In this document: positions 39,070-56,423 of the stretch, one piece after another
How the letters are laid out: every line of letters starts with the position of its first letter
Position numbering within the stretch: the first letter of the stretch is position 1
Assembly: GCF_023336755.1 (NCBI RefSeq)
Contig: NZ_JALZWP010000002.1
Location: 310,001 to 374,000 of the forward strand
Direction: 5' to 3'
Length of the DNA: 64,000 bases
Origin: Roseinatronobacter domitianus
GTDB taxonomy: Bacteria; Pseudomonadota; Alphaproteobacteria; Rhodobacterales; Rhodobacteraceae
Translations under genes and position numbers: made by a program
Notes under the pieces: generated by a model
What the model saw: only the letters and a program-made list of their open reading frames with translations
The model's database searches: none
What the model was told of the DNA's origin: nothing

Positions 39070-39118
39070 CACTGTTTTGGCGCGGGGTTGGCCCCCGCGC
39101 CCTATATTCGGGGATAAA

Positions 39119-40082: not shown

Positions 40083-40793
40083 CTAGCTGTGGGTCGTGGC
40101 AGATAACGCCCGATCATTGGCCGCAAGTTCGACCGCTGTAATAAAGGCAGCCCCCAGAATAGCGAATCGCCCTTGCAAGGTTGCGCCGGGGATGAAGCCG
40201 TCGACATCGGCCGTGAACTGTGCGGTGAATCGTTGTTTGGACAGATCTATCGTCAAGACTATGTCGTGAAAGCCCAGCATTTGGCGGCTTACGGCATATT
40301 GCGCCTTGTAGGCCGCTTCTTTCGCGCTGAAGACAAGTTTTGCGAAATGGCCCCGTTGCGACGGTCCAAGACTGGACAGCCAATTCATTTCCGCCATGGT
40401 GCAGATTTCCGGCCATAGCGCAGATTCAAGCGGCGCCGTGGCTTCAATATCCAACCCCAGCGCGCAGATTTCGGGCGCGTCCGTCACCACTGCAAGGCAA
40501 TCGCGTGCGCTGTGGGTGATAGAGCCGGTCAGGCCGCGTGGCCAGATGGGCGCGCGATCTTCACCTTGCAGCACGGGGCGCGGCGGCTGTCCCAGCAGGC
40601 TCATTGCCTCGCGCGCGGCGGCGCGACCGGCCCCGAATTCGCGCGCACGGGCAGGGCGGACCTGCTCGACGGCCAGAACCTCGTCCCCGATCAGGCGCGG
40701 CATGGGAGCGGTCGGGTCAGCCCAGGCCATGGCAACGGTTTCGCTGAACAGGGGCCGGGCGAATTCGGAATACGAAAAACGTTGTTGAATCAT
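40083..40793 (-). CDS. 4'-phosphopantetheinyl transferase (EntD-type)
   Basis: 236 residues. Attaches the phosphopantetheine arm to carrier proteins. Motifs of the Sfp/EntD family are RAREFGAGRAAAREAM (50-65), WPRGLTGSITHS (84-95), the magnesium motif GLDIE (113-117) and FSAKEAAYK (155-163). Its ATG overlaps the NRPS stop by four bases, and it is the last gene of the PKS-NRPS operon. It presumably activates the ACP of the PKS and the PCP of the NRPS encoded upstream. Confidence 0.93.
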   Translation of the reverse strand: MIQQRFSYSEFARPLFSETVAMAWADPTAPMPRLIGDEVLAVEQVRPARAREFGAGRAAAREAMSLLGQPPRPVLQGEDRAPIWPRGLTGSITHSARDCLAVVTDAPEICALGLDIEATAPLESALWPEICTMAEMNWLSSLGPSQRGHFAKLVFSAKEAAYKAQYAVSRQMLGFHDIVLTIDLSKQRFTAQFTADVDGFIPGATLQGRFAILGAAFITAVELAANDRALSATTHS

Positions 40794-43700
40794 TTGGAGC
40801 CAGTCCTTCTGTCACGCATGGCTCGGCGGCGGGCCGTGGCATCTAGGCGGTCGGGTTGTGCGGTTGCGTCAGGTGCCGGATGCAGGGGTTGCACGCTGGC
40901 CGGTTTTGCCGGGCGTTGCTTGGCCTCCAGATGGCGGGCCAGATCGCCCAAAACCGGGAAGCGGAAGATGTCAGTAATCGACAGTCCCGGCATGTTCAGC
41001 CGCGTGCGCAAGTCCCGATGCGCCTGCACCGCCAAAAGCGAATGGCCGCCAAGGTTGAAGAAATTATCCGACGCCTGCACCCGTGCCACGCCCAGCACGT
41101 CTTGCCACACCTGCGCAATGGTGGATTGCGTGCTGCCATCGGCCTGCGTGCCAGTGACCGGTTCAGGTGCCGAAAGCGGTGCTTGCGCCACAGGTGCGGG
41201 AAGCGCCTTGCGGTCGATTTTCTTGTTCGGGGTCAGCGGCAGGCTGGCCATGGGCACATAATGCGCAGGCAGCATATGCGCAGTCAGCCTGTCTGCCAGT
41301 GCTGCGCGCAATTCGCCCGTCGGGGTGCCGGTGTAATAGGCCACCAGCCGCACATCTCCGGGCTGATCTTCGCGCGCGATAACCACGGCGGCGTTGATAC
41401 CGGGCTGCGCTTCCAGCGCGGCCTCGATCTCGCCCAGTTCAATGCGGTGGCCGCGCAGCTTGACCTGATTGTCCACCCGGCCAAGAAAGTCGATACCCCC
41501 CGCCGGGTTGCGGCGCACCAGATCGCCCGTGCGGTATAGTCGCCCCGGCCCATAGGGGTTTTCGATAAACCGCTCTGCGGTCAGCTCGGCCCGGTTCCAA
41601 TAGCCGCGCGTAACACCATCGCCGCCGATATACAGTTCACCCTCGATGCCAAGGGCAACGGGGCGTTGTGCATCGTCCAGCACGTGCAGGGTTGTGTTGG
41701 CGATTGGTGCACCAATGCCGACCGTGCCCGAGCCGCCCCGCGATTGCGCGGTCGAAGACCAAATCGTCGTTTCCGTCGGCCCATACATGTTGCGCAGCGG
41801 CTGGCCGGTCAGCCCGGAGAGGTCTTGCGCCAAGGCACCCGGCAGTGCCTCGCCCCCGAGCATTACGTTGGGGACGGTGGCAAGGGCTGCGCGCGCCTCG
41901 TCATTCAGGCACAGCATCCGCGCCATGGACGGCGTGCATTGCAGATGCGTGACCTTGTGGCGCAGGATTTGCGCGGCCAGCGAGAAATCATCCTCCGGCA
42001 GTTGCAGCCCGGCATTGGACCGTTTCACCACCTCGGCCAGCGGATACAGCCCTTCCAGCACCTGTTCGGTGGCAATGCCATAGTCGATCAGGCAGGCCAC
42101 TTCGTTCACGCCGATGGCTTTCAACTGCTCGACCCGTTCGAGACAATCTTCGACCGTGCCGAACAGGCCCGAATCCTCGAAATAGCGGTTAAAGGCATAG
42201 TCCAGAATGCCCTCGACCTCATCCTCGGACAGGGTGGAGAGGTCGATATCCATGGGGTTCTTCGCGCCTTGGGGCTTTTTGAACGCCGGAAAAGCCCAGG
42301 CATATTGCTTTACCAGACCCGCCGCCGCCAGCAGGTAGCTTTTCATCGGGCCACGCGCCACTTCGCGAGCATGGTCGCGGTCGCGCGCGACGAAGGTGTG
42401 CAACATCAGCGTGACGGTGAACTTGGCAGGGTCATAGCCCGTTTCGCGCAGCGCTTCATGGTAGATCTTGATTTTGCCCTCTACCTCGGCAATCGACTGG
42501 CCCAGCAGGTGGGTCAGCACATGCGCGCCCAAGCGCCCGGCCTCACGCCATGTGTCGGGGTTGCCCGCCGTAGTCAGCCAGATGTTCAATTCGGACGACA
42601 CCGGGCGCGGCAAAGTCTGGATGGGCACCATGCCATCGCCCTTGTCGAATTCCACCGTTTCGCCGCGCCACAGCTTGCGCAGGGTGTCCAGCGTGTCGAA
42701 CATAGCCGCCTTGTTGTTGGGGGGGCGATTTTCGGGGCGCAGTACGAAATCGACCGGGTGCCAGCCAGAGGCGATGCCAATGCCGGTGCGCCCGTTGGTC
42801 AGGTTGTCGATCATGGCCCATTCTTCGGCAATGCGGATGGGTGAATGCAGCGGGGCCACGCAAGAGCCTGCCCGCACGGCGATATTCTTGGTCACGGCGG
42901 CAACCGCCGCGCCCGATACAGAGGGGTTGGCGAAAGGCCCGCCAAAGGCGTGGAAATGGCGTTCCGGCGTCCAGACCGCGCAGAAGCCGTGGGTGTCGGC
43001 GAACTTGGCGCCTTCCAGCAAAAGGTGATATTTCTGAGGGCCTTGGCCGTCATCATTGCCCCAATACATGAGGCTGAAATCCATGTGCCCGTCGCTGACG
43101 CGCACCGGGCCCTTGGCAACCATGGCGCGATCTTCGTCGCCCATCAGCACGATCTTGAAGCCGCGCGCCAGCGTCCAGAACAGTTCCAGCACGGAAATGT
43201 CGAAGCTGAGTGACGTGACAGCCAGCCACACGCCGGGCGGGTCGTGGCGGATGCAATCATCCATGCCCGCGAAGAAATTGGCGACATTGCTGTGTTCAAC
43301 CATGACCCCCTTGGGTGTTCCGGTAGAGCCTGACGTGTAGATCAGATAGGCAAGATTGTCGGCTGTGACCGCGCTGTCGGGGTTGGTTGCGGGAGCATCG
43401 GCCAGCCGCGAATCTGTGTCCAGTTGCAGCAGGTCTGCCGCGTGGTTGGGCAGCACATCCAGCAGCGCGTGTTCGGTCACGACAATCGGCGCGCCGGAAT
43501 CTGTCAGGTAATGCGCCAAGCGGTCGGAAGGGTATGCCGGGTCCAGCGGAACATAGGCGCCGCCAGCCTTCAGAATACCCAGTGCGCCCACCAGCAGGTT
43601 CGGCCCACGCTTGGCGCAAAGCGCAACGGGAGTATCGGGTTGTAGGCCCATGCTGAGCAGCACATGCGCGACACGGTTGGCGCGCGCGTTCAATTCGGCA

Positions 43701-45316
43701 TAGGTCAGGCGTTGCGCCTCGAATGTCAGCGCCTCGGCATCGGGGGTTTTGGCCACTTGCGCTTCGAACGCGTGGTGTATGCAGATTCGGTCATAATCCC
43801 GCGCTGTGTCGTCCTGTGGCGCTGCCGGCGCGTCGATCTGCGCCGAGAGCGGTAGATCGGCCAGTTTGGGGCCAAGCATTTCGATCTGCGTTTTCAGCGC
43901 CTCGGCTTGTTCGTGTGACAAACACGCCGGGTCGAACCGCAGGCACGGGCCGGACAGGTCCAGCACCAGCGCGGCATCGGTTAAGGTGCCATCGGTTACG
44001 GCCAATTCCGGCGGTGCGATGGGGCCAAGTTGCGGATCGCGCGCGGGAAGGTCGCGGGCCAAGGCAGGCGCGCGGGTGGCGCGTGTGATTTGCGTGGCAA
44101 GGCTGGTCAGTGGCCCGGTGTCGTCCATCTGGACGGCGAGCGGCACCCAGCCCAGCAGAAAATCTGAAGCCTGTGCGGCGTGTTCAGCACCGGCACGCGT
44201 AACATGTGCCATGCGCAGCGCGTCGCGCCCGAATTGCGCGGCCAATGCACCGGCGAAAGCTGCGATCTGTTGCGCGACCGTCGCGTCGCCCATGGACAGC
44301 GCCAGCATGTCTGACGGTGTGCCGCGCCCAAGCCCCAGATCGGACGCCGCGCGCAGGGCATCACGATAGCCAAGCTCTGCATTTCCAATTTGCGTCAGCA
44401 CATCATGCAGGCGTGTATCGGGGTTAGCGATTGTGTCGCCAGCAGCCGCGATTGCGGCTGGAATGACCGCGTGGCCTTGCTGGCAGGTCAGCCCGCTCAA
44501 GCGCAATGCGCCATCGGCGCAGGCCAGTGTCAGGCTGTTTTCGGTTACGTCCAGAACCGTGCCGGGGGTGGCGTGGCCGGTGGCGGGTTCAGCATGGCCC
44601 AGGCAGATGACCGTTTCGCCCAGTCGTAGCTTGGCCGTGGTCAGCGGGTTCCAATAGGGACCGTGGTCCATGGCGCGGACAAGGCGCATGATGTCGGACA
44701 TGGTCTGGCGCGGATCAATCTGCCCACCAAGTGCGGGCCGGTCGGCGCGGGTATGGACAGAGCGGGCCGACATGTCTTGCGGCTGGCGAATCAGCTGCCC
44801 GCTTTCCAGCATGTCCAGAACCTGCGCAAAGCTGTCCAGCCCGGCGCTGAAACATTTGGTGTTAAGCGTCAGCGCGGTGTCGTCGGATGTGATGTCGAAT
44901 TCGGCGCGCATTAGCACATCGCCGGTATCAACACCGTCTTCCATGATGTGCCAGGCGATGCCGTGGCGCGGCTCATCGTTCAGCAACGCCCAGACCGGCG
45001 CATTCAGCCCTGCATGGCGCGGCAATGGGCCGTCATGGAAATTGATCGCGGCATTGCGGGGCAGGTCCAGCACATCGCGCCCCAACATGCGCAGCCCGGC
45101 CACGTTGAACAGCCAATCAACCCGCAGCCCGGCCAGCCGTGCCGCCAGCCCTGCACCGGGGGTCAGCACGTTCAGTCCAGCGTCTGTTGCCCAATCCGCG
45201 ACACGCGGATTATCGGTGACAACCGCTGCCACAGAATGCCCGCGCGCCAAAATCTGTGCGCCACATTCTGCGGTCAAAGTTTCGTCGCCAATGAGGATGC
45301 TGCTAAACTGTGTCAT
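40790..45316 (-). CDS. NRPS module: formyltransferase, adenylation domain with inserted luciferase-like monooxygenase, PCP
   Basis: 1508 residues. Domains: formyltransferase-like (~1-280; NFHDGPLPRHAG at 92-103, with the catalytic-type ED/H region GIAWHIMEDGVDTGD); a linker ~290-500 resembling a remnant of a condensation domain without a recognisable HHxxxDG; adenylation domain from ~512 (A3 YTSGSTGTPKG 660-670, then FDISVLELF). At ~744-1095 an FMN-dependent luciferase-like domain of the MupA/Atu3671 type is inserted, starting DFSLMYWGNDDGQG. Adenylation then resumes (YGPTETT 1178-1184, YRTGDL, NQVKLRGHRIELGEIE). The PCP follows with LGGHS (S1426). The start ATG has AGGGG upstream. Confidence 0.92.
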   Translation of the reverse strand: MTQFSSILIGDETLTAECGAQILARGHSVAAVVTDNPRVADWATDAGLNVLTPGAGLAARLAGLRVDWLFNVAGLRMLGRDVLDLPRNAAINFHDGPLPRHAGLNAPVWALLNDEPRHGIAWHIMEDGVDTGDVLMRAEFDITSDDTALTLNTKCFSAGLDSFAQVLDMLESGQLIRQPQDMSARSVHTRADRPALGGQIDPRQTMSDIMRLVRAMDHGPYWNPLTTAKLRLGETVICLGHAEPATGHATPGTVLDVTENSLTLACADGALRLSGLTCQQGHAVIPAAIAAAGDTIANPDTRLHDVLTQIGNAELGYRDALRAASDLGLGRGTPSDMLALSMGDATVAQQIAAFAGALAAQFGRDALRMAHVTRAGAEHAAQASDFLLGWVPLAVQMDDTGPLTSLATQITRATRAPALARDLPARDPQLGPIAPPELAVTDGTLTDAALVLDLSGPCLRFDPACLSHEQAEALKTQIEMLGPKLADLPLSAQIDAPAAPQDDTARDYDRICIHHAFEAQVAKTPDAEALTFEAQRLTYAELNARANRVAHVLLSMGLQPDTPVALCAKRGPNLLVGALGILKAGGAYVPLDPAYPSDRLAHYLTDSGAPIVVTEHALLDVLPNHAADLLQLDTDSRLADAPATNPDSAVTADNLAYLIYTSGSTGTPKGVMVEHSNVANFFAGMDDCIRHDPPGVWLAVTSLSFDISVLELFWTLARGFKIVLMGDEDRAMVAKGPVRVSDGHMDFSLMYWGNDDGQGPQKYHLLLEGAKFADTHGFCAVWTPERHFHAFGGPFANPSVSGAAVAAVTKNIAVRAGSCVAPLHSPIRIAEEWAMIDNLTNGRTGIGIASGWHPVDFVLRPENRPPNNKAAMFDTLDTLRKLWRGETVEFDKGDGMVPIQTLPRPVSSELNIWLTTAGNPDTWREAGRLGAHVLTHLLGQSIAEVEGKIKIYHEALRETGYDPAKFTVTLMLHTFVARDRDHAREVARGPMKSYLLAAAGLVKQYAWAFPAFKKPQGAKNPMDIDLSTLSEDEVEGILDYAFNRYFEDSGLFGTVEDCLERVEQLKAIGVNEVACLIDYGIATEQVLEGLYPLAEVVKRSNAGLQLPEDDFSLAAQILRHKVTHLQCTPSMARMLCLNDEARAALATVPNVMLGGEALPGALAQDLSGLTGQPLRNMYGPTETTIWSSTAQSRGGSGTVGIGAPIANTTLHVLDDAQRPVALGIEGELYIGGDGVTRGYWNRAELTAERFIENPYGPGRLYRTGDLVRRNPAGGIDFLGRVDNQVKLRGHRIELGEIEAALEAQPGINAAVVIAREDQPGDVRLVAYYTGTPTGELRAALADRLTAHMLPAHYVPMASLPLTPNKKIDRKALPAPVAQAPLSAPEPVTGTQADGSTQSTIAQVWQDVLGVARVQASDNFFNLGGHSLLAVQAHRDLRTRLNMPGLSITDIFRFPVLGDLARHLEAKQRPAKPASVQPLHPAPDATAQPDRLDATARRRAMRDRRTGSK

Positions 45317-45325
45317 ACCAAACCC

Positions 45326-46312
45326 CTATCGGGCCGCTTCGCGTGCCCTTTTAGTGTCCTGAGAGGCCGTCGCGCCCGGCATCAGGGATCGCATTGTGTG
45401 TGAAAGCAAATCGCGCAGAAAATAAGGCGGAATGCGATCTTCTTTGCGTTCGATCACGCGGCGCGTGTTCCAGATGATCGCACCAGCCAGATAGGCTAAA
45501 GTCGTCAGTAGCGCATAGCCGCGCCCGCCACGATTGGTGAAATACAGCCAGCGCGAATCGAACCAATAGGCCGGTTTGCGTGCGTGTTCTGTCACCCCGG
45601 TAGAGGCACCGCCGACATGCACGACCCGGCTTGTGGGCAAAAACATGCCGTGCCAGCCAGCATCGGAAATGCGGTGGCACAGGTCGGTTTCCTCGAAATA
45701 CAGGAAGAACCGCTCATCAAACAGGCCGACCTGATCGAGCGTGGCGTGGCGAAACATCACGCTTGCCCCGGCGCACCAATCGACCCGCGTCGGGCTGCGT
45801 GGCATGCCGATGGGCACGATATGTTTGCGCAGCAACCGCGAGACGAGGCCGGTCTGCGCCGCTGTCTCGAGCTCTGACCAGGCAGAGTGAAACTGAAAGG
45901 CGGTGATGTGATCTTCGCCATCCTCGCCTTGAATATGGCTGCCAACAAAGCCGCAATCGGGGTGCGCACCAAGGTAATCGCGCAGCTTTGTAATGGCGTC
46001 GCGCTCGGGGAAGGCGTCAGAGTTCAGCAGGTAGATGAAATCGGGCCGCGCGCCGTCCGACAGCCCGGCGCGGATGCCGACATTGTTGCCCGCGCCAAAG
46101 CCGCCGTTATGGCCCGATTGAATAACGCGGGTCCGAGGCCAGCCCCGTGTGCCATCGCGCAGGATATCTTCCGACCCGTCGCCGCTGTCATTGTCGACGA
46201 TGACGATCTCGCCCGTCACCTCCTCCATGGCGGCAAGCGCCGCCTGCGCCGCCCGCAAGGTCATTTCGGCGGTGCGGTAATTCAGGATGACCGTCAGGAC
46301 GCAGCCGCTCAT
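45326..46312 (-). CDS. Glycosyltransferase family 2
   Basis: 328 residues. GT-A fold: LTVILNYRT at the start, IVIVDNDSGDGS, HNGGFGAGNNVGI, FIYLLNSDAFP (DxD-like NSD), and later FDERFFLYFEETDLCHR, the pattern of rhamnosyltransferase-like GT2 enzymes. A C-terminal hydrophobic helix (YALLTTLAYLAGAIIW) suggests membrane attachment. Its ATG overlaps the PKS stop by four bases, and nine bases separate its stop from the NRPS start. It presumably adds a sugar to the cluster product or to a lipid-linked intermediate. Confidence 0.9.
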   Translation of the reverse strand: MSGCVLTVILNYRTAEMTLRAAQAALAAMEEVTGEIVIVDNDSGDGSEDILRDGTRGWPRTRVIQSGHNGGFGAGNNVGIRAGLSDGARPDFIYLLNSDAFPERDAITKLRDYLGAHPDCGFVGSHIQGEDGEDHITAFQFHSAWSELETAAQTGLVSRLLRKHIVPIGMPRSPTRVDWCAGASVMFRHATLDQVGLFDERFFLYFEETDLCHRISDAGWHGMFLPTSRVVHVGGASTGVTEHARKPAYWFDSRWLYFTNRGGRGYALLTTLAYLAGAIIWNTRRVIERKEDRIPPYFLRDLLSHTMRSLMPGATASQDTKRAREAAR

Positions 46313-49300
46313 TCCGCCGCCTCCGTGCAGCAGGGCAGGTCGGGCAGCAGGGTTTGCAGCTTGGCGGCCAGAACGCGGACATTGGGTTCCAGAACCATGC
46401 TGTCATGATCGCCGGGCACTTCATACACTTCCAGCGCGGGCGCATATTGCGTCCAATTGTTGTCATGATAGACGAAATCGCGGTCATGGTTCAGCCATTG
46501 CCCGCCAGACACTTTCCAGTGTTTGTCGAGGGGCGGACGGAACAGCACCAATCTACCGCTCCACGGTTGCACCTCGTAGGCGGCGGCAGCGCGCAGGAAC
46601 GCGGCTTCGATCTCTGCATTATGGAACGCATCTTCGCTGGCTTGCTCTGGGGCACTGGCTTGTTTGCGTTTCCACTCCGCGCGGGCCTGCCACCATTCCG
46701 ACAGGTATTTCGGCCCCTTGCGCCGCAGTTCCGCGATCTTGATATACGCGCGGTCCAGTGCAGACGGGTCCGGGCGCACTGGCAAGGGAGAGTCGAGCAG
46801 AACGACCATATCGACCGCTTCGCCCGCAGCCTTCAACTGGCGCGCCATTTCATAAGCGGTGATTCCCCCGCCGGAAAAACCGCCAAGCGTGTAAGGCCCG
46901 TGCGGCTGCACCTGCCGGATTTCGGCGATATAATCGGCTGCGGCGTCCTCTATGCGGTCATGCGGGGCCTCGCCCCCGAACAGGCCGCGCGCCTGCAACC
47001 CGTAAAATGGCCGGTCGCGGCCTGCAAGCGTGGCCAGATGGCGCAGGTTCAACACATTCCCGAACATGCCCGCTACAAGGAAGAAGGGTGGCTTTGTCCC
47101 ACCTTCGCCGTCATGCATGGGCACAAGATGCTTGAAGCGGCGGCGCTTTGGCATCTGCACCACGTTGTCGCCCACAGCAGACTCGAGGCTTGCGCCCGTC
47201 TGCTCTGCGACCATCGCGGCACAGGCCGCGATGGTCGGCGCTTCGAACAGCACCGAAATGGGGAAATCCACGCCATAGGCTTTCTTGATCTGTGCGAACA
47301 AGCGCACCGCGATCAGCGAATGGCCGCCAAGATCGAAGAAACTGTCCTCGACCCCGATTTCATCTATGCCCAGCAAGTTTTGCCAGATACCCGTCAAAGT
47401 GCGCTCTACATCGTTGCGCGGGGCGATGTAATCGGTACCCAGATCGGGGCGCTCGAACCCGCCTTCGGTCGCGGGGGCGTTTGCCTCTGCTGTGACTTGC
47501 GCAATCAGAGCTTTGGGATCAATGGACGACACCACGATGGGCGATACCCCGGTTGCCAATGCGCGCAGGAAGGCCGCCGCGCCTTCGGTCGGTGTGATCC
47601 CCAGCGCCAGCATGTCGCGCAGCCGTTCTTCTGCGGGCGACAGGTTTGTGTTGGCGATGGCGTCGCGTTCAACCTCTGCGGCACGGATCGGGGCGGCATC
47701 GGCAAAGCTGCCCTGTGCCAGCCGCTTGATGGTAAAGCGCGTAATCTCTGCGACCACGGAACCATCCGGTGTGGCCAAGGTAATGTCGAAGCTGGCAAAG
47801 CCCGGATCGCTGTCGCCACGTAGCCGGGCATGGCTGATGATGTGTTGCGGCAGATCGGCCCAAACACGCACGCTGCCATAGGACAACGGCACCCACAGGT
47901 TAACACCGTTATAGCCGGGAATGAGGCCCATTGCCCAGCCGGTCGCAAGGTCCATCAGGGCCGGGTGCAGGATATGTCCGACCTCCAGATCGCCGACAAA
48001 GGCGTCGGGCAATGCCAGATCCGCCAAGCCTTCGCTGTTGCCATAGGCCATCCGGTTCAGAACGCGCCAGCGTGGTCCGAATGCCAGATGCGCTTCTTGC
48101 GGGCTGGCAAGGCCCGCGCCGGTCGTCACATCGGGGCAGCGTGCGGCAATGGCGGCAGGGTCAATCGGGGCGGGGCGCGCTTGGTTGTCCAAAAGCGTGA
48201 TCTGGGCTTGTGCGTTCAGCACGAACCCTTCGGAGCCGCCATGCATGACATCGGAGCGCAGCGCAAAATCATACCCTTCGGGAGAGCGCGCAAGCGTCGC
48301 GCGCAGTTTGCGTGTGCTGCCATCCGCCACACCAAGCGCGCGGAAGAAATACAGGTCACGCAATTCGAACGGGGCGGTTTCGCCTTGGGCACGTAGCGCC
48401 TGCGCGGCAAGGTCCAGATACCCAGTGCCCGGCAGAATTGCTGCGCCATCGCGGGTGCGGTGCTGGTCAACAAGCCAATGGCCGCTTTCCAGAGCGAGGG
48501 TCAGGCGGCGGTTGCCCGCCGGGTCGAACCCCATCTCGTCATAAAGCGGTTGCGGGCAGGGGCTGGCAGGCGCGCTGGGCGTTTGCCCCAGACGCTGCGC
48601 CATGGCGTCGGCGGCCATGCCCGCTTCGGCCCAGATGCCCCAATCCAGCGCGATGACGCGGGTTTTGCCGCCCACGCGCGACCGGGCAAAGGCGTTCAGG
48701 TATTCATTCGCGGCGACATAATCCACCTGCCCCACCGGCGCGGTCAGGGTAGAACTGGACGAAAACAGTGCCATCACCTGCAAACTGCCATCGGGCAGCA
48801 GGCTGTCGAGCACGCGCAACCCGTGCAATTTTGGCGCGAACACTTCCTCTACGTCGCCTGTGGATTTCGCGAGCATCGGAGCATCGGCCATATGCCCTGC
48901 GGCATGGATCAGACCATAAGGCGCACCATGCGCGGCTTGGGCGGCGGCCAGCGCATTGCGCATCTGGTCAATGTTGCAAACATCCGCGCCCGCGACGTGG
49001 ACATGGCCGCCAAGGGCTTCCAACCGCTCCACCGCCAGAATGCGGCGGGTCGTCGTATCCGCGGGGCCATGGCTGGCCTGCCACGCGGCCCAGTCGGTGC
49101 GGTCGGGCAGGGGGGTGCGGGCGATCAGGGTGATTTTTGCCTTGAACCGCGTAATCAGGTCTTCGGCAAGGCTTAGGCCAATACCGCCAAACCCGCCGGT
49201 AATGACCCAATGCGCACCATCGGGCATGTCGGGGACCGCATCGGGCAGCGGGGCGGGGCGCAAGACCTGCCCATACCGCTTGCCCGCGCGCAACAGGGCC

Positions 49301-52300
49301 GTGGTGCTGGCCGGCGCGGCGCAGATTTCTTCCAGCAACATGTCTGGCGTTGCGGTTCCGTCAATATCCAGCGTCGCGCAGGTCAGGCCCACAATTTCAC
49401 GCGGGGCGACGCGGGCAGGACCAGCGATCGTGGCTTTTTCCGGGTAGCGCAGCGCCTCGCCCTCCAAAGCCTGCGCGCCATTGGTGAACACAACCATATG
49501 CACTGGCTGCGGCAGGGTTTCGCTTTGCATGGCCTGCGCGAGGAACATCAGCGCGTAAAACCCTTGTTCAATATTGCGGTGCAAGAAGCTGGAACCGGGG
49601 CGGAAGCGTTCTTTCCCCGTCACCAGCCAGAAATGCGCGATGCGCGTGGGCGCGGTGCCGCTGGCGATCAGATCGGCCAGCAGGCGGGCATAGGCCTCGC
49701 GCCCGTGTTCCGGGGCGAGGGTGAAGGACGTGTCTGATTTGCGCGCATAGGTATCGCCCGCGCGCACTTCGATCACCTTGTGACCGGCGCGGCGCAAACG
49801 GTCCATGACCGGGGCGGCGGTGCCGTCCTCGTCGGCAAAGACCAACCATGTTTGCGGGTCCGTCCCCAGATCCGTGCTTACGTCAATTTCGCAATCGGCA
49901 TAGGCAGGCTTCCACGCGATCCTGGTGCCCCATTTGGAAATATCGTCAATGCGTTCCAGCGCCGGGGCGGCCTCGACCGTCGTTTGGCCCGGTTCGATGA
50001 AATAGCGCGCGCGTTGGAAGGCATATGTGGGCAGTTCCACGCGGTGGCGCTTGGCGTCGCCCCAGATTTGCGCCCAATCAAAACTGCCACCCAGCGCCCA
50101 GATTCGCGCCAGAACGCCCAGATGATACAGGTCATCTGCGATCTCTTCTTCCGGGTGGCGCAGCGCGGCCAGCACCTGTTGCCCCGGCACGGCACCATGC
50201 ATGCGGGCAAGCGAGGACAGCGCCTTGCCCGGACCCATTTCAAGGTAAATCCGGTTCGGAACCGCGCTGAGTTTGCCAATGCAATCGGCAAAGCGCACGG
50301 TGTTGCGCAGGTGCTGCACCCAGTAATCCGGGTCGGTGGCTTGCGCGTCGGTCAATTCCTGCCCGGTGCGGTTTGAAATGATGGGCAAACGCGGCGCGTT
50401 TAGCGGGATCGACCGCAGATAAGCGCCGAATTCGGCCAAGATCGGCTCCAGCATCCGGCTATGCGCGGCAATGTCGATGGCGATACGCGTGGCCTCGACC
50501 TCCTCCACAGCGAGCTGCGCTTGCAGACGGTCCAATGCGGCTTGCGGGCCGGAGACAACCGTCAGTTCCGGCGCATTTACCGATGCGATGTCATGGTCTT
50601 CATCCAGATAGGGTTGCAGCGCGTCGAGTGACAAGGGCACCGACAGCATCCCGCCCGCAGGCACCGTGTCGAACAACCGCCCGCGCAGGTGGACAAGGCC
50701 GATGCAGTCTTCGAACGACATGACACCGGCCAAGCATGCGGCGGTGTTTTCGCCCATGGAATGGCCGACCAGAACCGAGGGTTCCACCCCCCAGCCCATG
50801 AACATCTGCGCCAAAGCGTATTCGGTAATCATGATAAGCGGCAGTTGCACAGACGGCTTGGTCAGCGCCGCATTCGCCGCCGCCTCTGCGCCCTTTTCGG
50901 GCAACCACAGCGCGCGCAGGTCATAGTCCAGCTTGGGTTGCAGGTGGTCCAGGCCACGGTCCATCCATTCGGCAAAGACCGGTTCGGTTTCATACAATTC
51001 CCGCGCCATGCCCGCGTATTGCGCACCGCCGCCGGGGAACATGAACACCATGTCGGGCCGGTCGAGAGCTGAATGGGTGAACACGCGGCGCGGGTTGTCC
51101 TGTTCCAGCAGGTCGGCGGCTTCCGCATGGGTTTCCGCCACGACCACGCGGCGCTGGTCCAGTTCGGTGCGCCCCTCTTTCAACGTAAAGGCCACATCGG
51201 CCAAGGGCTGCTCGGAGTGCGCGCGCAGATGGGCTGCCAAGCGCGCTGCGTTCGCGGCGAGCGCGGTTTTGGATTTGGCCGAGAGCGTCATTATCTGGAA
51301 GGGCCAATCGCTTTCGTCCGACGGTCCGCGCGCCGGCGCTTCTTCCAGCACGACATGCGCGTTGGTGCCGCCAACACCAAGGCTGTTGACGCCAGCGCGC
51401 AAGGGGCCATCCGCCTGCCATGGGGTAAGCGTGTCGTTCACCACGAAGGGCGAATGTTCGAAATCAATGGCGGGGTTCGGGGCCTCATACCCCAAGGAGG
51501 GCGGCAATTCGCGGTGGCGCAGGGCTTGCACGACCTTGATGATGCTTGCGACCCCTGCCGCCGTGTCCAGATGCCCGATATTGGTTTTCACAGACCCGAT
51601 GCGGCAAAACCCTGCCTTGTCGCTAGCGAATGCTTCCGTCAGTGCGGCCACTTCGATCGGGTCGCCCAGATAGGTGCCGGTGCCGTGGCACTCGACGTAA
51701 GTTATACTTTCCGACGATACGCCCGCAATCTGGTGCGCCTCTGCAATCGCCTGCGCCTGCCCTTCGACCGAGGGGGCCAGATAGCCCGCTTTCTGCGCGC
51801 CGTCATTGTTGATGGCCGTGCCTTTGATAACGGCGATGATGCGGTCGCCATCGGCCAGCGCATCGGACAGACGGCGCAGCACCACCGCGCCCGCACCAGA
51901 GCCAAACACCGTGCCTTGCGCGCGATGGTCGAAAGCGTGGCATTCGCCATCGGGCGAGAGGATCTCGTTTTCCTTATGCAGGTAGCCGCGCGCTTGCGGC
52001 AGTTCTATCGTCACGCCCCCCGCCAGCGCCATGTCGCATTCGCCCGTTAGTAGCGCATTCACCGCGTAATGCACCGCCACCAGAGAGGTCGAGCAGGCTG
52101 TCTGCACGTTCACCGATGGCCCGTGCAGGTCCAGAATATGGCTGACGCGGGTTGTCAGGAAATCCTTGTCATTGCCGGTGTGGCGCAGCAGGAACATGCC
52201 CACATCATCGACCAGATGCGGGTTGGAACAGATGTTGAAATAGAAATAGCTGCCCATGCCGCAGCCGGAAAACACGCCGACCTTGCCTTTTTCACCGCGC

Positions 52301-52641
52301 GGCGGGTGGCCTGCATTCTCAAACGCTTCCCACGCGACTTCCAGAAACTGGCGGTGTTGGGGGTCTAGAATTGCGGCCTCTTTCGGGGAAAAGCCGAACA
52401 GGTCGGGGTCGAAATCGGCAAAACCCTCCAGCGGTGCGGCAAAGGGCACATAGTTGGGCTTGCGCAGCATGGCGGCAGATTCGCCCGCGTCCAGCAGGTC
52501 TTGCTCTGACATCTTGCGGATAGACGACCGCCCGGCGCGCAGATTGTCCCAGAATTCCGCCACCGACGCGGCGCCGGGCAAATGCGCGGCCATGCCGATA
52601 ATGGCAATGTCATTCTCGTTGGAAATCTGCTCGTTACTCAT
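46309..52641 (-). CDS. Type I polyketide synthase, KS-AT-KR-DH-ACP-TE
   Basis: 2110 residues. Ketosynthase ~12-435 (C183 in TACSTS, H319 in VECHGTGT, H357 in NIGHLDT); acyltransferase ~530-830 (GHSMG, S628; AAHS at the specificity position); ketoreductase with an N-terminal structural half ~905-1130 and catalytic half 1142-1340 (TGGFGGIG, Y1308); dehydratase ~1385-1650 (DQHRTRDGAAILPGTGYL; HPALMD with D1564); ACP (LGGHS, S1775); thioesterase ~1848-2095 (GFSGGG, S1923). The dehydratase follows the ketoreductase, the reverse of the usual order. The predicted chemistry is one extension to an alpha,beta-unsaturated product released by the TE. Overlaps both neighbours by four bases. Confidence 0.94.
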   Translation of the reverse strand: MSNEQISNENDIAIIGMAAHLPGAASVAEFWDNLRAGRSSIRKMSEQDLLDAGESAAMLRKPNYVPFAAPLEGFADFDPDLFGFSPKEAAILDPQHRQFLEVAWEAFENAGHPPRGEKGKVGVFSGCGMGSYFYFNICSNPHLVDDVGMFLLRHTGNDKDFLTTRVSHILDLHGPSVNVQTACSTSLVAVHYAVNALLTGECDMALAGGVTIELPQARGYLHKENEILSPDGECHAFDHRAQGTVFGSGAGAVVLRRLSDALADGDRIIAVIKGTAINNDGAQKAGYLAPSVEGQAQAIAEAHQIAGVSSESITYVECHGTGTYLGDPIEVAALTEAFASDKAGFCRIGSVKTNIGHLDTAAGVASIIKVVQALRHRELPPSLGYEAPNPAIDFEHSPFVVNDTLTPWQADGPLRAGVNSLGVGGTNAHVVLEEAPARGPSDESDWPFQIMTLSAKSKTALAANAARLAAHLRAHSEQPLADVAFTLKEGRTELDQRRVVVAETHAEAADLLEQDNPRRVFTHSALDRPDMVFMFPGGGAQYAGMARELYETEPVFAEWMDRGLDHLQPKLDYDLRALWLPEKGAEAAANAALTKPSVQLPLIMITEYALAQMFMGWGVEPSVLVGHSMGENTAACLAGVMSFEDCIGLVHLRGRLFDTVPAGGMLSVPLSLDALQPYLDEDHDIASVNAPELTVVSGPQAALDRLQAQLAVEEVEATRIAIDIAAHSRMLEPILAEFGAYLRSIPLNAPRLPIISNRTGQELTDAQATDPDYWVQHLRNTVRFADCIGKLSAVPNRIYLEMGPGKALSSLARMHGAVPGQQVLAALRHPEEEIADDLYHLGVLARIWALGGSFDWAQIWGDAKRHRVELPTYAFQRARYFIEPGQTTVEAAPALERIDDISKWGTRIAWKPAYADCEIDVSTDLGTDPQTWLVFADEDGTAAPVMDRLRRAGHKVIEVRAGDTYARKSDTSFTLAPEHGREAYARLLADLIASGTAPTRIAHFWLVTGKERFRPGSSFLHRNIEQGFYALMFLAQAMQSETLPQPVHMVVFTNGAQALEGEALRYPEKATIAGPARVAPREIVGLTCATLDIDGTATPDMLLEEICAAPASTTALLRAGKRYGQVLRPAPLPDAVPDMPDGAHWVITGGFGGIGLSLAEDLITRFKAKITLIARTPLPDRTDWAAWQASHGPADTTTRRILAVERLEALGGHVHVAGADVCNIDQMRNALAAAQAAHGAPYGLIHAAGHMADAPMLAKSTGDVEEVFAPKLHGLRVLDSLLPDGSLQVMALFSSSSTLTAPVGQVDYVAANEYLNAFARSRVGGKTRVIALDWGIWAEAGMAADAMAQRLGQTPSAPASPCPQPLYDEMGFDPAGNRRLTLALESGHWLVDQHRTRDGAAILPGTGYLDLAAQALRAQGETAPFELRDLYFFRALGVADGSTRKLRATLARSPEGYDFALRSDVMHGGSEGFVLNAQAQITLLDNQARPAPIDPAAIAARCPDVTTGAGLASPQEAHLAFGPRWRVLNRMAYGNSEGLADLALPDAFVGDLEVGHILHPALMDLATGWAMGLIPGYNGVNLWVPLSYGSVRVWADLPQHIISHARLRGDSDPGFASFDITLATPDGSVVAEITRFTIKRLAQGSFADAAPIRAAEVERDAIANTNLSPAEERLRDMLALGITPTEGAAAFLRALATGVSPIVVSSIDPKALIAQVTAEANAPATEGGFERPDLGTDYIAPRNDVERTLTGIWQNLLGIDEIGVEDSFFDLGGHSLIAVRLFAQIKKAYGVDFPISVLFEAPTIAACAAMVAEQTGASLESAVGDNVVQMPKRRRFKHLVPMHDGEGGTKPPFFLVAGMFGNVLNLRHLATLAGRDRPFYGLQARGLFGGEAPHDRIEDAAADYIAEIRQVQPHGPYTLGGFSGGGITAYEMARQLKAAGEAVDMVVLLDSPLPVRPDPSALDRAYIKIAELRRKGPKYLSEWWQARAEWKRKQASAPEQASEDAFHNAEIEAAFLRAAAAYEVQPWSGRLVLFRPPLDKHWKVSGGQWLNHDRDFVYHDNNWTQYAPALEVYEVPGDHDSMVLEPNVRVLAAKLQTLLPDLPCCTEAAE

Positions 52642-54146
52642 GACAGTTGATCCTGTTCGGGATTAAAACGGTCCGGTCTTTGCCGGGGTTGTGCAGTGGC
52701 CAGAAGGGTCCGGCGGGTGCTGGACTGGCGCAATTTGTCGATCCGGGCGGTGCGCGTGCGCTCGGCCTGCAACTCTGCATGGCCCAGAAGCGCACCCGCC
52801 AGCAGCCAGGTGAAGGGGATCAGCGTGGCATTCGGCAGCAGATCGACCACGTTAGCCCCCAGCAGCAGCGCCAAAAGCCCAACCTGCGCGGGGATTTGCG
52901 TGTTCGGCACCTGACGATACCGCCACCATAGCGCAAGCAGCGGCAGGCAGAGCAGACCGAAGGTGGCAATATAGCCCAGCCAGCCGGCTTGCCCGATGGT
53001 GATAATCCACTGGCCGTCAGAAATGGTCAGCGCCTCTCCGGTTTCGGGATCGTAGACCAGGTTGCGACCCCAAGCGCCCCAGCCGAACAAGGGTTTGTCG
53101 GCGGCGCGTTCCAGCAGGATATCCTCGTTCGTAAAACGGTAAGCGAGAGATTCCGCGCGGTCGGGGCTTAGCCCGGCGATGAACCGCACCAGCGCATCGG
53201 CTGGCACAATGCCAGAGCCGCGCAACAGCGGATAGGCCATGGCCGTCAATGCCATCAGTGCGGCGATGCGCAACTGCATGCGCGGGCCGAAAAACAGCAC
53301 CAGCGGGGCCACCACCAACGCCAGCGCCCATGGGCCGACACTGCGGCATAGAACCAGCATCAGGCCTAGCCAGATTGCAATCATGATCGCGCGCGTGCGC
53401 TCTTCCGGACCAGCTTGCCGAGCCTGCAACAGGGCAGAGGCAAAGCACATCATGGCAAAGAACGCGACCCAAAGACCGTGCGGCATGAACACATAGGGCC
53501 GGAAACCGCCAAACCGGATCGCCTGCCCGTAATCATGCTGAATGAATCCATAGACCATGCGGTGCAGTTCCGGCCCGATCGCGTTTTCGATCACGATTGG
53601 GACCGAATAGATCAGCCCGGCCACGACCAGCGCGCGCGGAAGTTCCGCCAACGCGCGTTCATGCGCCAGCAAGCTGCGCGCCAGAAAGAAAGGCAGCATG
53701 AAGATGATTTGCGCCACCACAACCGAAAGCGAGTCGTAAAGCCGCAACCCCGGAATGGTCGCGTTCGCAGGCGAGAATATTCCCATCCATGTGGTGTGGT
53801 CCGATGTGACCAGCCCAAAGCGCAACGGCTCTGTATTGGTAAATACGGTAAAGGCGGGGGACAGGACGAACAGCACCAGCAACACGCGCGCCAGCAGGTT
53901 CTGCGGCACGACCACGACGCGCTCGCGGACAAGCGCCAGGCAAACCACGAAGGCGGTGACATTGGGGATCAGCACTTTGTCCAGATCCGGCAGCAGCGGC
54001 AGCCCGATCTGGGTGATCTGCGGCAATGCCATGTAGCCGCCAAGGATGGACCAGATGAACGCCCGCTCGACCGGCATGCGCTTGAACATGATTAAAATGA
54101 CCAGAGGCCATGTCAGAAGTGCAAGATATGCGACTGCGTTGCCCAT
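52638..54146 (-). CDS. O-antigen polymerase/ligase-like membrane protein (Wzy/WaaL type)
   Basis: 502 residues with about 10-12 hydrophobic helices and a large central hydrophilic loop, the topology of Wzy polymerases and O-antigen ligases. The segment VLLVLFVLSPAFTVFTN and a late YIATFGLLCLPLLALWWRY fit the family. Its C-terminal tail is basic. It overlaps the PKS start by four bases and follows the chain-length protein gene by eight. In this operon it might polymerise or transfer a glycan or glycan-polyketide unit. The specific activity cannot be predicted. Confidence 0.78.
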   Translation of the reverse strand: MGNAVAYLALLTWPLVILIMFKRMPVERAFIWSILGGYMALPQITQIGLPLLPDLDKVLIPNVTAFVVCLALVRERVVVVPQNLLARVLLVLFVLSPAFTVFTNTEPLRFGLVTSDHTTWMGIFSPANATIPGLRLYDSLSVVVAQIIFMLPFFLARSLLAHERALAELPRALVVAGLIYSVPIVIENAIGPELHRMVYGFIQHDYGQAIRFGGFRPYVFMPHGLWVAFFAMMCFASALLQARQAGPEERTRAIMIAIWLGLMLVLCRSVGPWALALVVAPLVLFFGPRMQLRIAALMALTAMAYPLLRGSGIVPADALVRFIAGLSPDRAESLAYRFTNEDILLERAADKPLFGWGAWGRNLVYDPETGEALTISDGQWIITIGQAGWLGYIATFGLLCLPLLALWWRYRQVPNTQIPAQVGLLALLLGANVVDLLPNATLIPFTWLLAGALLGHAELQAERTRTARIDKLRQSSTRRTLLATAQPRQRPDRFNPEQDQLS

Positions 54147-54154
54147 ACTGCCCC

Positions 54155-55519
54155 TCAGCCGCCCAGACGCATCATGACCAGCGCCAGCAAGGTCAGGCCT
54201 ACCAGCGCGCCACCTGCGGCCCAGCCAATGCTGCGACGGCGTCGTTCAGCAGGAAGTTCCAGCTTGGGAATGACCAGCACAGGCTGCATCCCCAACTCGC
54301 GTTCAACTTGGCTTGCGCTGCGCAAGGCTGGGTTTAGCCATTCGATGGCATAAGACAGCATCAGCCCCAGAAACAGGCCCGCGGCCAGACCCATCACAAC
54401 GATGGACGCGCGCGACCGTGAGGAGGGGTAATCCGCGGGCAGCGCGGGTTCCAGCATATTGAAGCGTTCGAAGTTCTGATCGTCATCCAGTTGTTCGCCC
54501 AGCGACGCGTTCAGACGCCGTTCGGCAATTTCATTGGCCTGTTCGCGCAGTTGAAATTCGCGCCGCTCCAATGCGTCCAGTTGAAACGCGATTTGCGGGG
54601 CGGCGCGGGCCAAGCGTTCCAGTTCTGCCGATTGCTGCCGCAATTGGTCAAGCTCGCGGCGCGCTGCCTCCAGCTCTTCCTGCGCGGCGTTCAGGCGGCG
54701 CTGTTCGGTGGCACGCAGCCGGCTTTGGCCTTGCAGCGTGGCAATTTCGTTCTCCAAGCCAGCAATTTCACGGTCGGCGCGTAGCAAATCCTCGCGGATG
54801 ACGGTTTGCTCGGCGCGGCGATCTTCCATCGCGTCGGGCAACAGTTCGAAATTCTCGGATTTGAAGGCCACAATCTCGGCCGCGACTGCTTCGATCTCTT
54901 GGCGGATGCGGTCTTCCTGACGGGCGAAAAAGTCGATCGCCTCGCGCACATTGCCAGCCACGGCCGAGGCGTTTTCTTGCACGATGGCCCCGGCCAACTC
55001 ATTGGCCAGATCGGCGGCGACCTGTGCATCGCCTGCTTCGGTCATGACCCGCACAAGCGACACGATGGCATCTGTCGCGAAGGCTTCGGTTACGCTGACC
55101 GTCAGGGTGCGCGAGCGGTTTTCGCTAGTAACATCGGTGCCCAGCGCGGCCCGTTCGCGGATTGCGGCGACAACTTCAAACCGGATCGATTCGCGCATCC
55201 CAACGACACGCTCTTGCGGGGTCAGGCCGGGGAGCATGTCGTATTTGTCGGCAAGTATCAGCAGATTGTCGCGTGACATCAGCCGTTGCTCTACAGAGGC
55301 CAGCCGCCGCGCTGCGCTGGACGGCACGGCCGCCGAGGTCACGTCGCTGCCAACGCTTGGCCCTTGGACCTGAATCACCGCCTGGCTTTCGTAGCTATGT
55401 TCGGAACTGAGCGCGAAGAAGATCGCGCCGACCGTGGCGATAAACGCCGTGGCCGCGATCAGTGCCGCCCGCCGCGAAAGGAAGCCGAAAAGCTCGCCAA
55501 GTGTCTGGATCGGGCCCAT
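54155..55519 (-). CDS. Chain-length determinant (Wzz/GumC-like) protein
   Basis: 454 residues. One N-terminal membrane helix (ALIAATAFIATVGAIFFALS) is followed by a Wzz domain and a long coiled coil (~190-345, with many Glu/Arg heptads such as EEARRELDQLRQQSAELERL). Two C-terminal hydrophobic stretches follow (SIVVMGLAAGLFLGLMLSYA and WAAGGALVGLTLLALVMM). There is no fused kinase domain. A separate BY-kinase-like gene lies immediately upstream. These proteins control chain length or export of polysaccharides. Confidence 0.88.
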   Translation of the reverse strand: MGPIQTLGELFGFLSRRAALIAATAFIATVGAIFFALSSEHSYESQAVIQVQGPSVGSDVTSAAVPSSAARRLASVEQRLMSRDNLLILADKYDMLPGLTPQERVVGMRESIRFEVVAAIRERAALGTDVTSENRSRTLTVSVTEAFATDAIVSLVRVMTEAGDAQVAADLANELAGAIVQENASAVAGNVREAIDFFARQEDRIRQEIEAVAAEIVAFKSENFELLPDAMEDRRAEQTVIREDLLRADREIAGLENEIATLQGQSRLRATEQRRLNAAQEELEAARRELDQLRQQSAELERLARAAPQIAFQLDALERREFQLREQANEIAERRLNASLGEQLDDDQNFERFNMLEPALPADYPSSRSRASIVVMGLAAGLFLGLMLSYAIEWLNPALRSASQVERELGMQPVLVIPKLELPAERRRRSIGWAAGGALVGLTLLALVMMRLGG

Positions 55520-55535
55520 CGGTGCCGCCCCTTTC

Positions 55536-56423
55536 TTAACTGCGCTTGGCGTTGCTACGCGCCGCGCTTGTGTTCTGATTCAGGATTACGCCCAGAAAAT
55601 CGGATTTTTCGGCCAGCAAACGCTCGCATTGGGTGATGTCGGCGGCTGTGGTGGTGTTGCTGTCGGCCACCAGCAGCGTTGCGCCCATTTGCGGCAGAAT
55701 GGTCATGGCGGCGTCGCCTTCCAGCAGCGGCGGCAGGTCGCAGATTACCAGTTGCGGGACGAGTTCTGCGGTCAGTTCGTCCAGCATTTCTGCCAGTTCC
55801 TGTGCCGAGATGGATTTGCTCAGCAGGTCCGGGCTGTCACTTGGGGCACCCAGGCCAACCGCGACCCGGCTGGTGATCTTGACCAGATGGTCATGCGGGC
55901 TGGCCGCGCCAGAGATCATGGCATCCATCGGGCCGGGGCTTTGCAATTCGAAAAAGCGGTGCAAGGCCGGTGCGCCCACGTTCAGGTCCAACGCCAGAAC
56001 ACGCTGTTCGTTGCGACGTGCGAAACTGGCCAGAAGCCCGGCGGTTACGAAGCTGGTGCCGCAGCCATTATGCGGCGCGGTGATCGCAAGAGTGCGCAAG
56101 CGCCTATCGGCAAAGGTTTGGGAAAGCTGGGTGCGCAACACGTCGAATAGCCCGGCGATTTCGGGTGAACGCGCCTGCTTGTTGAACTGGGTCATCGCGG
56201 AATTCGGCGCGGGGTCGCGGGTAAAGCTTTGCAGGCTGTCCCATTCTGCTTCAACCTGCGCCAAACGCTGCGGAGAAAGCCCGCGGGCCCCGTCGCGCCG
56301 TAACTCCCGGTGGCCGGAAAGCGCAAGGCTGCGCGGCTGATGCACGGCACCACCGCCCGCCCGTTTCGGGCCGGGTGTGGGCGCAGAGCCCAGAAGCTTT
56401 TCTAGCCGTGTTGTATCCACCAT
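55536..56423 (-). CDS. BY-kinase-like (CpsD/CapB) ATPase with degenerate active site
   Basis: 295 residues. The C-terminal half (~85-285) has the MinD/BY-kinase fold: LFDVLRTQLSQTF, a P-loop position APHNGCGTSFV (116-126), Walker A' VLALDLNVGAPALHRFF and Walker B QLVICDLPPLLEGDAA. The P-loop lysine is replaced by threonine (T123 in GCGTS), and the protein contains no tyrosine at all, so the usual C-terminal Tyr cluster is absent. It is the first gene of the operon, 16 bp ahead of the chain-length protein gene. It is probably a structural or regulatory partner of Wzz rather than an active tyrosine kinase. Confidence 0.85.
   Translation of the reverse strand: MVDTTRLEKLLGSAPTPGPKRAGGGAVHQPRSLALSGHRELRRDGARGLSPQRLAQVEAEWDSLQSFTRDPAPNSAMTQFNKQARSPEIAGLFDVLRTQLSQTFADRRLRTLAITAPHNGCGTSFVTAGLLASFARRNEQRVLALDLNVGAPALHRFFELQSPGPMDAMISGAASPHDHLVKITSRVAVGLGAPSDSPDLLSKSISAQELAEMLDELTAELVPQLVICDLPPLLEGDAAMTILPQMGATLLVADSNTTTAADITQCERLLAEKSDFLGVILNQNTSAARSNAKRS

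What the first reader, a model, noticed from the sequence alone, without database searches (positions are those of the whole stretch)
40083..56423. A single operon joins exopolysaccharide-export genes to a PKS-NRPS assembly line
Seven leftward genes are chained by four-base stop/start overlaps or gaps of 8-16 bp: BY-kinase-like, Wzz/GumC-like, Wzy/O-antigen-ligase-like, PKS, glycosyltransferase, NRPS, PPTase. Chain-length and polymerase/ligase genes are not usual parts of a PKS-NRPS cluster, so the arrangement suggests a surface or secreted product with both sugar and formyl-aminoacyl-polyketide parts. I know of neither a named cluster nor a product with this exact gene set, although related PKS-NRPS loci in Rhodobacterales may exist.
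Basis: partly seen in the sequence, partly recalled or inferred. Interest (0 to 1): 0.87.

Follow-up and report, generated by a model that had tools for sequence, protein, structure and literature searches.

The report
Natural-product assembly line inside slime-polysaccharide operon
A bacterial operon couples genes that build a surface polysaccharide to a two-protein assembly line that should make a small formylated acyl group; the pairing recurs across a large bacterial family, which suggests that a long-known 'orphan' gene cluster may serve to decorate the cell's slime.

Summary
The seven-gene, single-strand operon is real (junctions +16, +8, -4, -4, +9, -4). The window is Roseibaca domitiana V10T, contig 2; a 2023 paper lists this NRPS and PKS at the same coordinates, product unknown. 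The PKS-GT-NRPS-PPTase core is a known orphan of roseobacters; the papers read on it do not contain the word exopolysaccharide. The link is strong: the NRPS occurs in 141 of 394 family genomes; PKS-GT-NRPS are contiguous in 63 of 63 full named loci; a Wzy, Wzz, kinase, Wzx or initiating-transferase gene lies near in 59 of 63 named loci and 36 of 39 family loci, against 0 of 40 control stretches. The exact seven-gene order is local: 12 distinct genomes besides the window. The line reads formyltransferase-A(Gly-like)[flavin monooxygenase]-PCP, then KS-AT-KR-DH-ACP-TE, catalytic residues conserved. Best reading: it makes a short N-formyl-(hydroxy)glycyl acyl group that is put on a Wzx/Wzy-type polysaccharide. 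Attachment is inferred. This group's 'kinase' has lost its Walker A lysine. RkpA/WcbR-type PKS in capsule loci is the closest precedent.

The parts
55536..56423 (-). BY-kinase-like ATPase (CpsD/BceF type), separate from Wzz; Walker A lysine replaced by Thr, no tyrosine in the last 30 residues: probably a pseudokinase here
54155..55519 (-). Wzz/GumC-type polysaccharide co-polymerase
   Evidence: PF02706 30.8 bits over cut-off 25.5; TIGR03007 113.7 bits, below its 278.85 cut-off
52638..54146 (-). Wzy/WaaL-type GT-C membrane protein (polymerase or ligase)
   Evidence: weak PF04932; model pLDDT 86.3, best PDB match WaaL 7tpg
46309..52641 (-). Type I PKS, KS-AT-KR-DH-ACP-TE, no loading domain, no ER
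   Evidence: catalytic residues of KS, AT, KR, ACP, TE and DH His/Asp in 78 of 78 sequences
45326..46312 (-). GT2 (GT-A fold) glycosyltransferase, rhamnosyltransferase-like
   Evidence: model pLDDT 90.8
40790..45316 (-). NRPS starter module: formyltransferase, no condensation motif, A domain with Gly-like code split by a MupA/Atu3671 flavin monooxygenase, PCP
40083..40793 (-). Sfp/EntD-type 4'-phosphopantetheinyl transferase, presumed to arm the two carrier proteins
   Evidence: PF17837, PF01648 over cut-off

Best explanation
The operon is a polysaccharide locus with a built-in acyl-group factory. Read from domain content: the PPTase arms the carrier domains; the NRPS loads a small amino acid, most likely glycine, formylates it and oxygenates it; with no condensation domain it is a starter module. 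The PKS, which has no loading domain, takes that starter, adds (probably) malonate once, reduces and dehydrates it, and its thioesterase releases the acyl group. Inferred beyond that: the group goes onto a sugar, or the neighbouring GT2 adds the sugar that carries it, on a lipid-linked repeat unit; a Wzx-type flippase coded elsewhere in the genome flips it, the Wzy-like protein polymerises or ligates it, and Wzz with the kinase-like protein sets chain length. The four-gene core is the constant part and appears beside differing sets of polysaccharide genes.
For: Conserved catalytic residues: formyltransferase N, H, D 72 of 72; A-domain code D, I, L, Q, G, W 72 of 72 and A10 lysine 72 of 72; KS Cys/His/His, AT Ser, KR Ser/Tyr/Asn, ACP Ser, TE Ser and His 78 of 78. 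Colinearity: the NRPS lies directly upstream of the PKS on the same strand in L169, L170 and L219 and in Aliiroseovarius sp. M344, where the next protein is KS-AT-KR-DH-ACP-C-A-PCP-TE. Linkage: 59 of 63 named loci and 36 of 39 family loci against 0 of 40 control stretches. Outside the family: Aminobacter (Wza, O-antigen ligase, flippase), Rhizobium grahamii L159 (Wzx, WecG), and 4 of the 7 unnamed outside genomes found: L172 (Wzx, WecG), L173 (Wza, initiating transferase), L170/L171 (Wzy_C over cut-off, GT4, UDP-glucose dehydrogenase), L175/L220 (Wza, two GT4, UDP-glucose dehydrogenase). The GT has a GT-A fold, and 29 of 29 homologues match the rhamnosyltransferase model. None of the seven genes is an exporter of small molecules.
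Against: No chemistry is known. Three of the 7 unnamed outside genomes (G766: L169, L218; G1076: L174, L219; G1065: L176) and Aliiroseovarius M344 show no polysaccharide genes in the stretches seen, so the acyl line can exist without them; G1076 and M344 carry an added NRPS module. The 4 of 63 named loci without a strict marker include 3 of the 4 Hydrogenophaga loci, which have GT4/GT2 and WecG only; family loci L068, L071 and L075 also lack one. The divergent rhizobial-type loci lack the GT between PKS and NRPS. A free acid released by the TE fits the domains as well as transfer to a sugar. Initiating transferase, Wza and Wzx genes are not in the window's operon but elsewhere in the genome.
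Confidence: 0.55

Rival explanations
1. The PKS-NRPS makes a free or glycosylated small metabolite (signal, chelator or antibiotic) with its own GT; it shares a transcript or neighbourhood with polysaccharide genes because both are switched on during surface growth.
For: The NRPS-PKS pair exists without polysaccharide genes in 3 of 7 unnamed outside genomes and in Aliiroseovarius M344. Roseobacter papers list it among secondary-metabolite clusters.
Against: None of the seven genes is a small-molecule exporter, resistance gene or regulator; the GT is of the GT2/GT-A kind, not the GT-B kind usual for natural products (recalled); linkage 59 of 63 against 0 of 40 and recurrence outside the family.
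Confidence: 0.27
2. The PKS acts repeatedly and makes a lipid-like chain that anchors or primes the polysaccharide, like RkpA/WcbR in capsule loci.
For: The same genome has a KS-AT-DH-ER-KR-ACP protein beside capsule-synthesis, ABC ATPase and polysaccharide-export genes; PMC3908369 passages state that wcbR/rkpA PKS genes lie with capsule synthesis and export genes.
Against: Domain order differs: no ER, a TE present, and a formylating NRPS as partner; a saturated chain could not be made by this protein alone.
Confidence: 0.1
3. Chance neighbourhood without functional tie.
For: The exact seven-gene order is restricted to one genus and two near relatives.
Against: Four-base overlaps within the operon; linkage in the family and outside it in differing orders.
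Confidence: 0.05

Closest known systems
Orphan PKS/NRPS four-gene cluster of the Roseobacter clade (PMC4337385, PMC5014874, which cite Martens et al.)
   Same: Same four genes (PKS, glycosyltransferase, NRPS, PPTase). Leisingera sp. ANG-M7, counted in PMC4337385 Table 2, holds the core in L124. Product unknown.
   Different: Their main texts do not contain the word exopolysaccharide; here Wzy, Wzz and a kinase-like gene are in the same operon.
NRPS-T1PKS region 2.2 of Roseibaca domitiana V10T (PMC10584327)
   Same: The identical genes: NRPS 350,790-355,316 and PKS 356,309-362,641 of contig 2 = window 40790-45316 and 46309-52641.
   Different: [quoted passage not shown] 'exopolysaccharide' does not occur in the main text.
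RkpA/WcbR capsule-associated type I PKS
   Same: A type I PKS encoded with polysaccharide synthesis and export genes; a locus that looks like one is on contig 26 of this genome.
   Different: The contig 26 protein is KS-AT-DH-ER-KR-ACP without NRPS, beside ABC-type capsule genes; the window's is KS-AT-KR-DH-ACP-TE with a formylating NRPS, beside Wzy/Wzz-type genes.
XrtA (PEP-CTERM) exopolysaccharide loci
   Same: Best NCBIfam matches of Wzz and kinase are the XrtA-system models; such loci hold an acyl-activating enzyme and carrier protein (recalled).
   Different: Both score far below the cut-offs.
A domains split by a monooxygenase, e.g. MtaG of myxothiazol (recalled)
   Same: Gly-type A domain with a flavin monooxygenase inserted between core motifs.
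   Different: Here a starter module with formyltransferase, in a polysaccharide locus.

Membership tests
Roseobacter four-gene PKS/NRPS orphan cluster | PKS, GT, NRPS and PPTase genes together | tested here: met
   In window; PKS-GT-NRPS contiguous in 63 of 63 and with PPTase in 58 of 63 full named loci
MupA/Atu3671 luciferase-like monooxygenase | TIGR04020 over curated cut-off | tested here: met
   471.3 bits, cut-off 244.45
Formylating NRPS starter (LgrA type) | Formyltransferase domain with N-H-D residues before the A domain, no condensation motif between them | tested here: met
   PF00551 58.9 bits; N92, H94, D130 in 72 of 72, HHxxxDG in 0 of 72; LgrA is the best PDB match
Glycine-activating A domain | Specificity code D-I-L-Q-x-G-x-I-W (recalled Gly code) | tested here: inconclusive
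   Residues fit and are conserved, but the reference code and its positions are recalled; a paper search for it found nothing
RkpA/WcbR PKS | KS-AT-DH-ER-KR-ACP next to capsule genes | tested here: not met
   Window PKS is KS-AT-KR-DH-ACP-TE; the contig 26 protein does fit
XrtA exopolysaccharide system | TIGR03007 Wzz and TIGR03018 kinase over cut-off | tested here: not met
   113.7 against 278.85 and 64.6 against 230.65 bits
Bacterial tyrosine kinase (active) | Walker A lysine and C-terminal tyrosines | tested here: not met
   Window: Thr for Lys, no Tyr in the last 30 residues. Lys lost in 9 of 37 (window and 8 loci), kept in 28 of 37
Wzy/WaaL GT-C | Pfam Wzy_C over cut-off or GT-C fold | tested here: inconclusive
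   Pfam below cut-off, fold match to WaaL at E 1.8e-5, TM 0.44/0.54; polymerase or ligase not distinguished
Wzx/Wzy-dependent polysaccharide | Polymer made and carrying the acyl group | not testable with these tools
   needs chemistry

The most novel reading that the evidence does not exclude
The cassette makes a polysaccharide with an unusual reactive or metal-binding side group: formylated glycine that is oxygenated either on carbon (a hemiaminal, able to cross-link) or on nitrogen (an N-formyl-N-hydroxy group, a hydroxamate like hadacidin, able to bind iron), lengthened by one C2 unit. An NRPS-PKS line would then be a dedicated decorating machine of a Wzy-type polymer in about a third of the sampled genera of a major aquatic bacterial family, and a chelating or self-sticking slime could explain its spread.
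Probability: 0.2. Interest if true: 0.85.

Novelty: new variant of a known kind. Interest (0 to 1): 0.62.

Why it matters
The four-gene core has been noted as conserved and product-unknown in roseobacters (28 of 57 genomes in PMC4337385), and no product is named in the papers read. Tying it to polysaccharide assembly gives a direct test: look for the group on the glycan as well as in the culture extract. If right, it extends assembly-line chemistry from secreted metabolites to the decoration of a bulk surface polymer in many aquatic bacteria.

Tried and rejected
XrtA membership: rejected on model cut-offs. RkpA membership of the window PKS: rejected on domain order. Active kinase: rejected for the window's copy. 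Confirming the glycine code in print: no paper found. MtaG-type precedent in print: one listing hit, not opened. Promoter/terminator scan: no excess over shuffles. Co-evolution: distance matrices of Wzy, Wzz and kinase follow the PKS (Mantel r 0.74, 0.75, 0.76; NRPS 0.87, GT 0.81, PPTase 0.43; none of 999 permutations as high), but shared species history explains this as well, so I give it little weight. Low-molecular-weight phosphotyrosine phosphatase next door as partner of the kinase: found beside only some relatives, left open. Sequence searches of Wzy and Wzz against PDB: nothing useful.

Label searches alone had missed them; Pfam scans of these and newly fetched flanks found Wzy_C, Wza, GT4 and UDP-glucose dehydrogenase genes, so they moved to the linked side. 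In one search I had also looked at the residue before the A10 lysine; the lysine itself is invariant.

Literature: all 10 searches used., which joined the cluster with exopolysaccharide or Wzy terms, returned 0 papers; two searches returned 22 and 152 papers, of which 20 and 25 titles were listed, none on this link by title. The statement that the link was not seen in print rests on these and on the passages read; Martens et al. itself was not seen.
Full report
Observation. The seven leftward genes are present at the stated coordinates and are spaced +16, +8, -4, -4, +9, -4 bp. Pfam and NCBIfam give a PPTase, an NRPS with formyltransferase, A domain, luciferase-like monooxygenase and PCP, a GT2, a type I PKS, a Wzy_C-like membrane protein (below cut-off), Wzz, and a BY-kinase-like ATPase. 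The gene upstream (56772-58394) is a FAD monooxygenase 348 bp away, followed by metallo-beta-lactamase-fold, fumarylacetoacetase-type and homogentisate dioxygenase genes; on the other side the nearest gene that matches a family (39053-39556, + strand) is a phosphotyrosine phosphatase. In the flanks scanned the polysaccharide locus does not go on.

Source. The window is G000 contig 2, 310001-374000. PMC10584327 (abstract, found passages and section 3.2.3 read) lists in Table 2 the NRPS at 350,790-355,316 and T1PKS at 356,309-362,641 of Roseibaca domitiana V10T, which equal window 40790-45316 and 46309-52641. It treats the region as a new NRPS-like/T1PKS cluster of unknown product; the word exopolysaccharide does not occur in the main text.

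Distribution. At E <= 1e-150 the NRPS is found in 141 of 394 genomes of the family, drawn about one per genus (140 of 393 genera). In the genus 23 of 37 genomes, the window's own among them, have a match at E = 0; several of these are pieces on short contigs. At E <= 1e-120 it is found in 7 of 385 genomes of the class, two outside the family; at E <= 1e-150 in 16 of 398 of the phylum, six outside the family; together these are 7 distinct outside genomes. They include Ruegeria, Leisingera, Shimia, Gemmobacter, Salipiger, Paracoccus and, outside the family, four Hydrogenophaga at about 61% PKS identity.

Gene order. In the 63 named loci longer than 26 kb (17 shorter ones of the 80 left out), PKS-GT-NRPS are contiguous on one strand in 63 and followed by the PPTase in 58. 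At least one of Wzy, Wzz, kinase, Wzx or initiating transferase lies in the stretch, which reaches 10 kb to each side of the PKS, in 59 of 63; with WecG, in 62 of 63. The four without a strict marker are L098 and the Hydrogenophaga loci L101, L108 and L111. For 20-kb family loci the count is 36 of 39 (one short locus of 40 dropped; L068, L071 and L075 fail), and for 40 control stretches of 20 kb at round coordinates in ten of the cluster-bearing genomes it is 0, also for WecG and for the GT4 and GT2 labels. Cautions: the search set held genes taken from these neighbourhoods, the named loci are longer than the controls, and some genomes occur in both locus sets. With a wider label set the named count was 60 of 63. 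In the other genus loci fetched the stretch or contig ends before all seven could be seen.

Beyond the family. Annotated plasmids within the order show the core with Wzz, kinase, WecG, sugar transferase, dTDP-rhamnose genes and exosortase XrtD in Ruegeria conchae; with sugar transferase and GT genes in Ruegeria sp. SCSIO 43209; and with flippase, WecG, EpsE-type GT and sugar transferase in Paracoccus marcusii, where formyltransferase and the rest of the NRPS are annotated as separate genes. Outside it, Aminobacter sp. MSH1 has Wza, O-antigen ligase and flippase genes, and Rhizobium grahamii L159 has Wzx and WecG. Of the 7 unnamed outside genomes, four have polysaccharide genes within about 20 kb: L172 (Wzx, WecG), L173 (Wza, initiating transferase), L170/L171 (Wzy_C at 55 bits over a 31.7 cut-off, GT4, UDP-glucose dehydrogenase) and L175/L220 (Wza, two GT4, UDP-glucose dehydrogenase); three do not in the stretches seen: G766 (L169, L218), G1076 (L174, L219) and G1065 (L176, one side only in part). 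The Aliiroseovarius sp. M344 plasmid has none annotated within 15 kb.

Assembly line. In 72 NRPS sequences (window included) the formyltransferase residues N92, H94, D130 are invariant, the code positions read D, I, L, Q, M/L/F/Y, G, M (71, one X), I/V, W, the A10 lysine is invariant, and no HHxxxDG condensation motif lies before the A domain. In 78 PKS sequences the KS, AT, KR, ACP and TE catalytic residues and the DH His and Asp are invariant; the DH-motif glycine and proline are kept in 74 and 77. The code resembles that recalled for glycine; no call confirms it. The NRPS lies directly before the PKS on the same strand in L169, L170 and L219 and in Aliiroseovarius sp. M344; in the last and in L219 the PKS protein goes on with C-A-PCP-TE. 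This supports transfer from NRPS to PKS. A single extension, malonate as extender and the place of oxygenation are inferences.

Polysaccharide half. The GT model (pLDDT 90.8) has a GT-A fold, with 392 PDB matches at E <= 0.001 led by GalNAc transferases; all 29 aligned homologues match the MftF and rhamnosyltransferase models at E <= 0.001, the window's scores being well below the cut-offs. The Wzy model (pLDDT 86.3) has WaaL 7tpg as its only match at E <= 0.001. The kinase-like protein lacks the Walker A lysine in the window and eight loci whose PKS is 71-90% identical to the window's (9 of 37), while 28 of 37 keep it, so in this group it may be a structural partner of Wzz and not an enzyme. 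Initiating transferases, Wza and Wzx lie elsewhere in this genome.

Precedent. Contig 26 of this genome carries a KS-AT-DH-ER-KR-ACP protein followed by an aminotransferase, and further on a capsule-synthesis protein, an SDR, an ABC ATPase and a polysaccharide-export gene. That resembles the rkp/wcb type of capsule locus, in which PMC3908369 (passages) says a type I PKS lies with capsule synthesis and export genes; PMC7902896 (passages) lists the rkp clusters of rhizobia. The R. domitiana paper calls that PKS exclusive to the species. So PKS genes in polysaccharide loci are known; a formylating NRPS with a PKS in a Wzy/Wzz-type operon is the new variant.

Literature on the core. PMC5014874 (passages) describes a PKS, glycosyl transferase, NRPS and PPTase cluster conserved among roseobacters, product unidentified. 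PMC4337385 (passages) gives 28 of 57 genomes and asks for its product. Neither main text contains the word exopolysaccharide. The other papers opened (PMC4818494, PMC3910554, PMC13101523; passages) add nothing on the link.

Verdict. Observation confirmed and widened; the core is a known orphan, its polysaccharide context is the useful new fact, and the decoration model is the best reading at about 0.55.

Noticed in passing
G000 contig 26 (L161:2994-10304, L162:2316-9715): Second type I PKS (KS-AT-DH-ER-KR-ACP) with aminotransferase, SDR and capsule genes: looks like an rkp/wcb capsule locus, although PMC10584327 lists this PKS as a species-exclusive natural-product cluster.
   Followed up: partly
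window 55536-56423: Kinase-like protein has lost the Walker A lysine in the window and eight close loci (9 of 37); the window's copy also has no tyrosine in its last 30 residues.
   Followed up: yes
window 39053-39556: Low-molecular-weight phosphotyrosine phosphatase gene, convergent with the operon; possible Wzb-like partner, but seen beside only some relatives.
   Followed up: partly
L217:10489-24228 and L219:8223-19990: Aliiroseovarius sp. M344 plasmid and genome G1076: the formylating NRPS followed by a PKS protein with an added C-A-PCP-TE part, without polysaccharide genes nearby.
   Followed up: partly
L156:12584-14236: Exosortase XrtD and dTDP-rhamnose genes in the Ruegeria conchae copy of the locus; XrtD matched only 2 of 63 named loci.
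   Followed up: partly
L101, L108, L110, L111: Hydrogenophaga (Burkholderiales) genomes carry the core at about 61% PKS identity, which suggests transfer of the cassette between classes.
   Followed up: partly
L102: Record titled Exiguobacterium profundum SSD5 holds the core in an arrangement shared with Rhodobacteraceae loci; probably a misnamed assembly.
   Followed up: no
L147:23601-26105 and relatives: A conserved protein of about 834 residues with no Pfam match lies near the core in 34 of 63 named loci.
   Followed up: no
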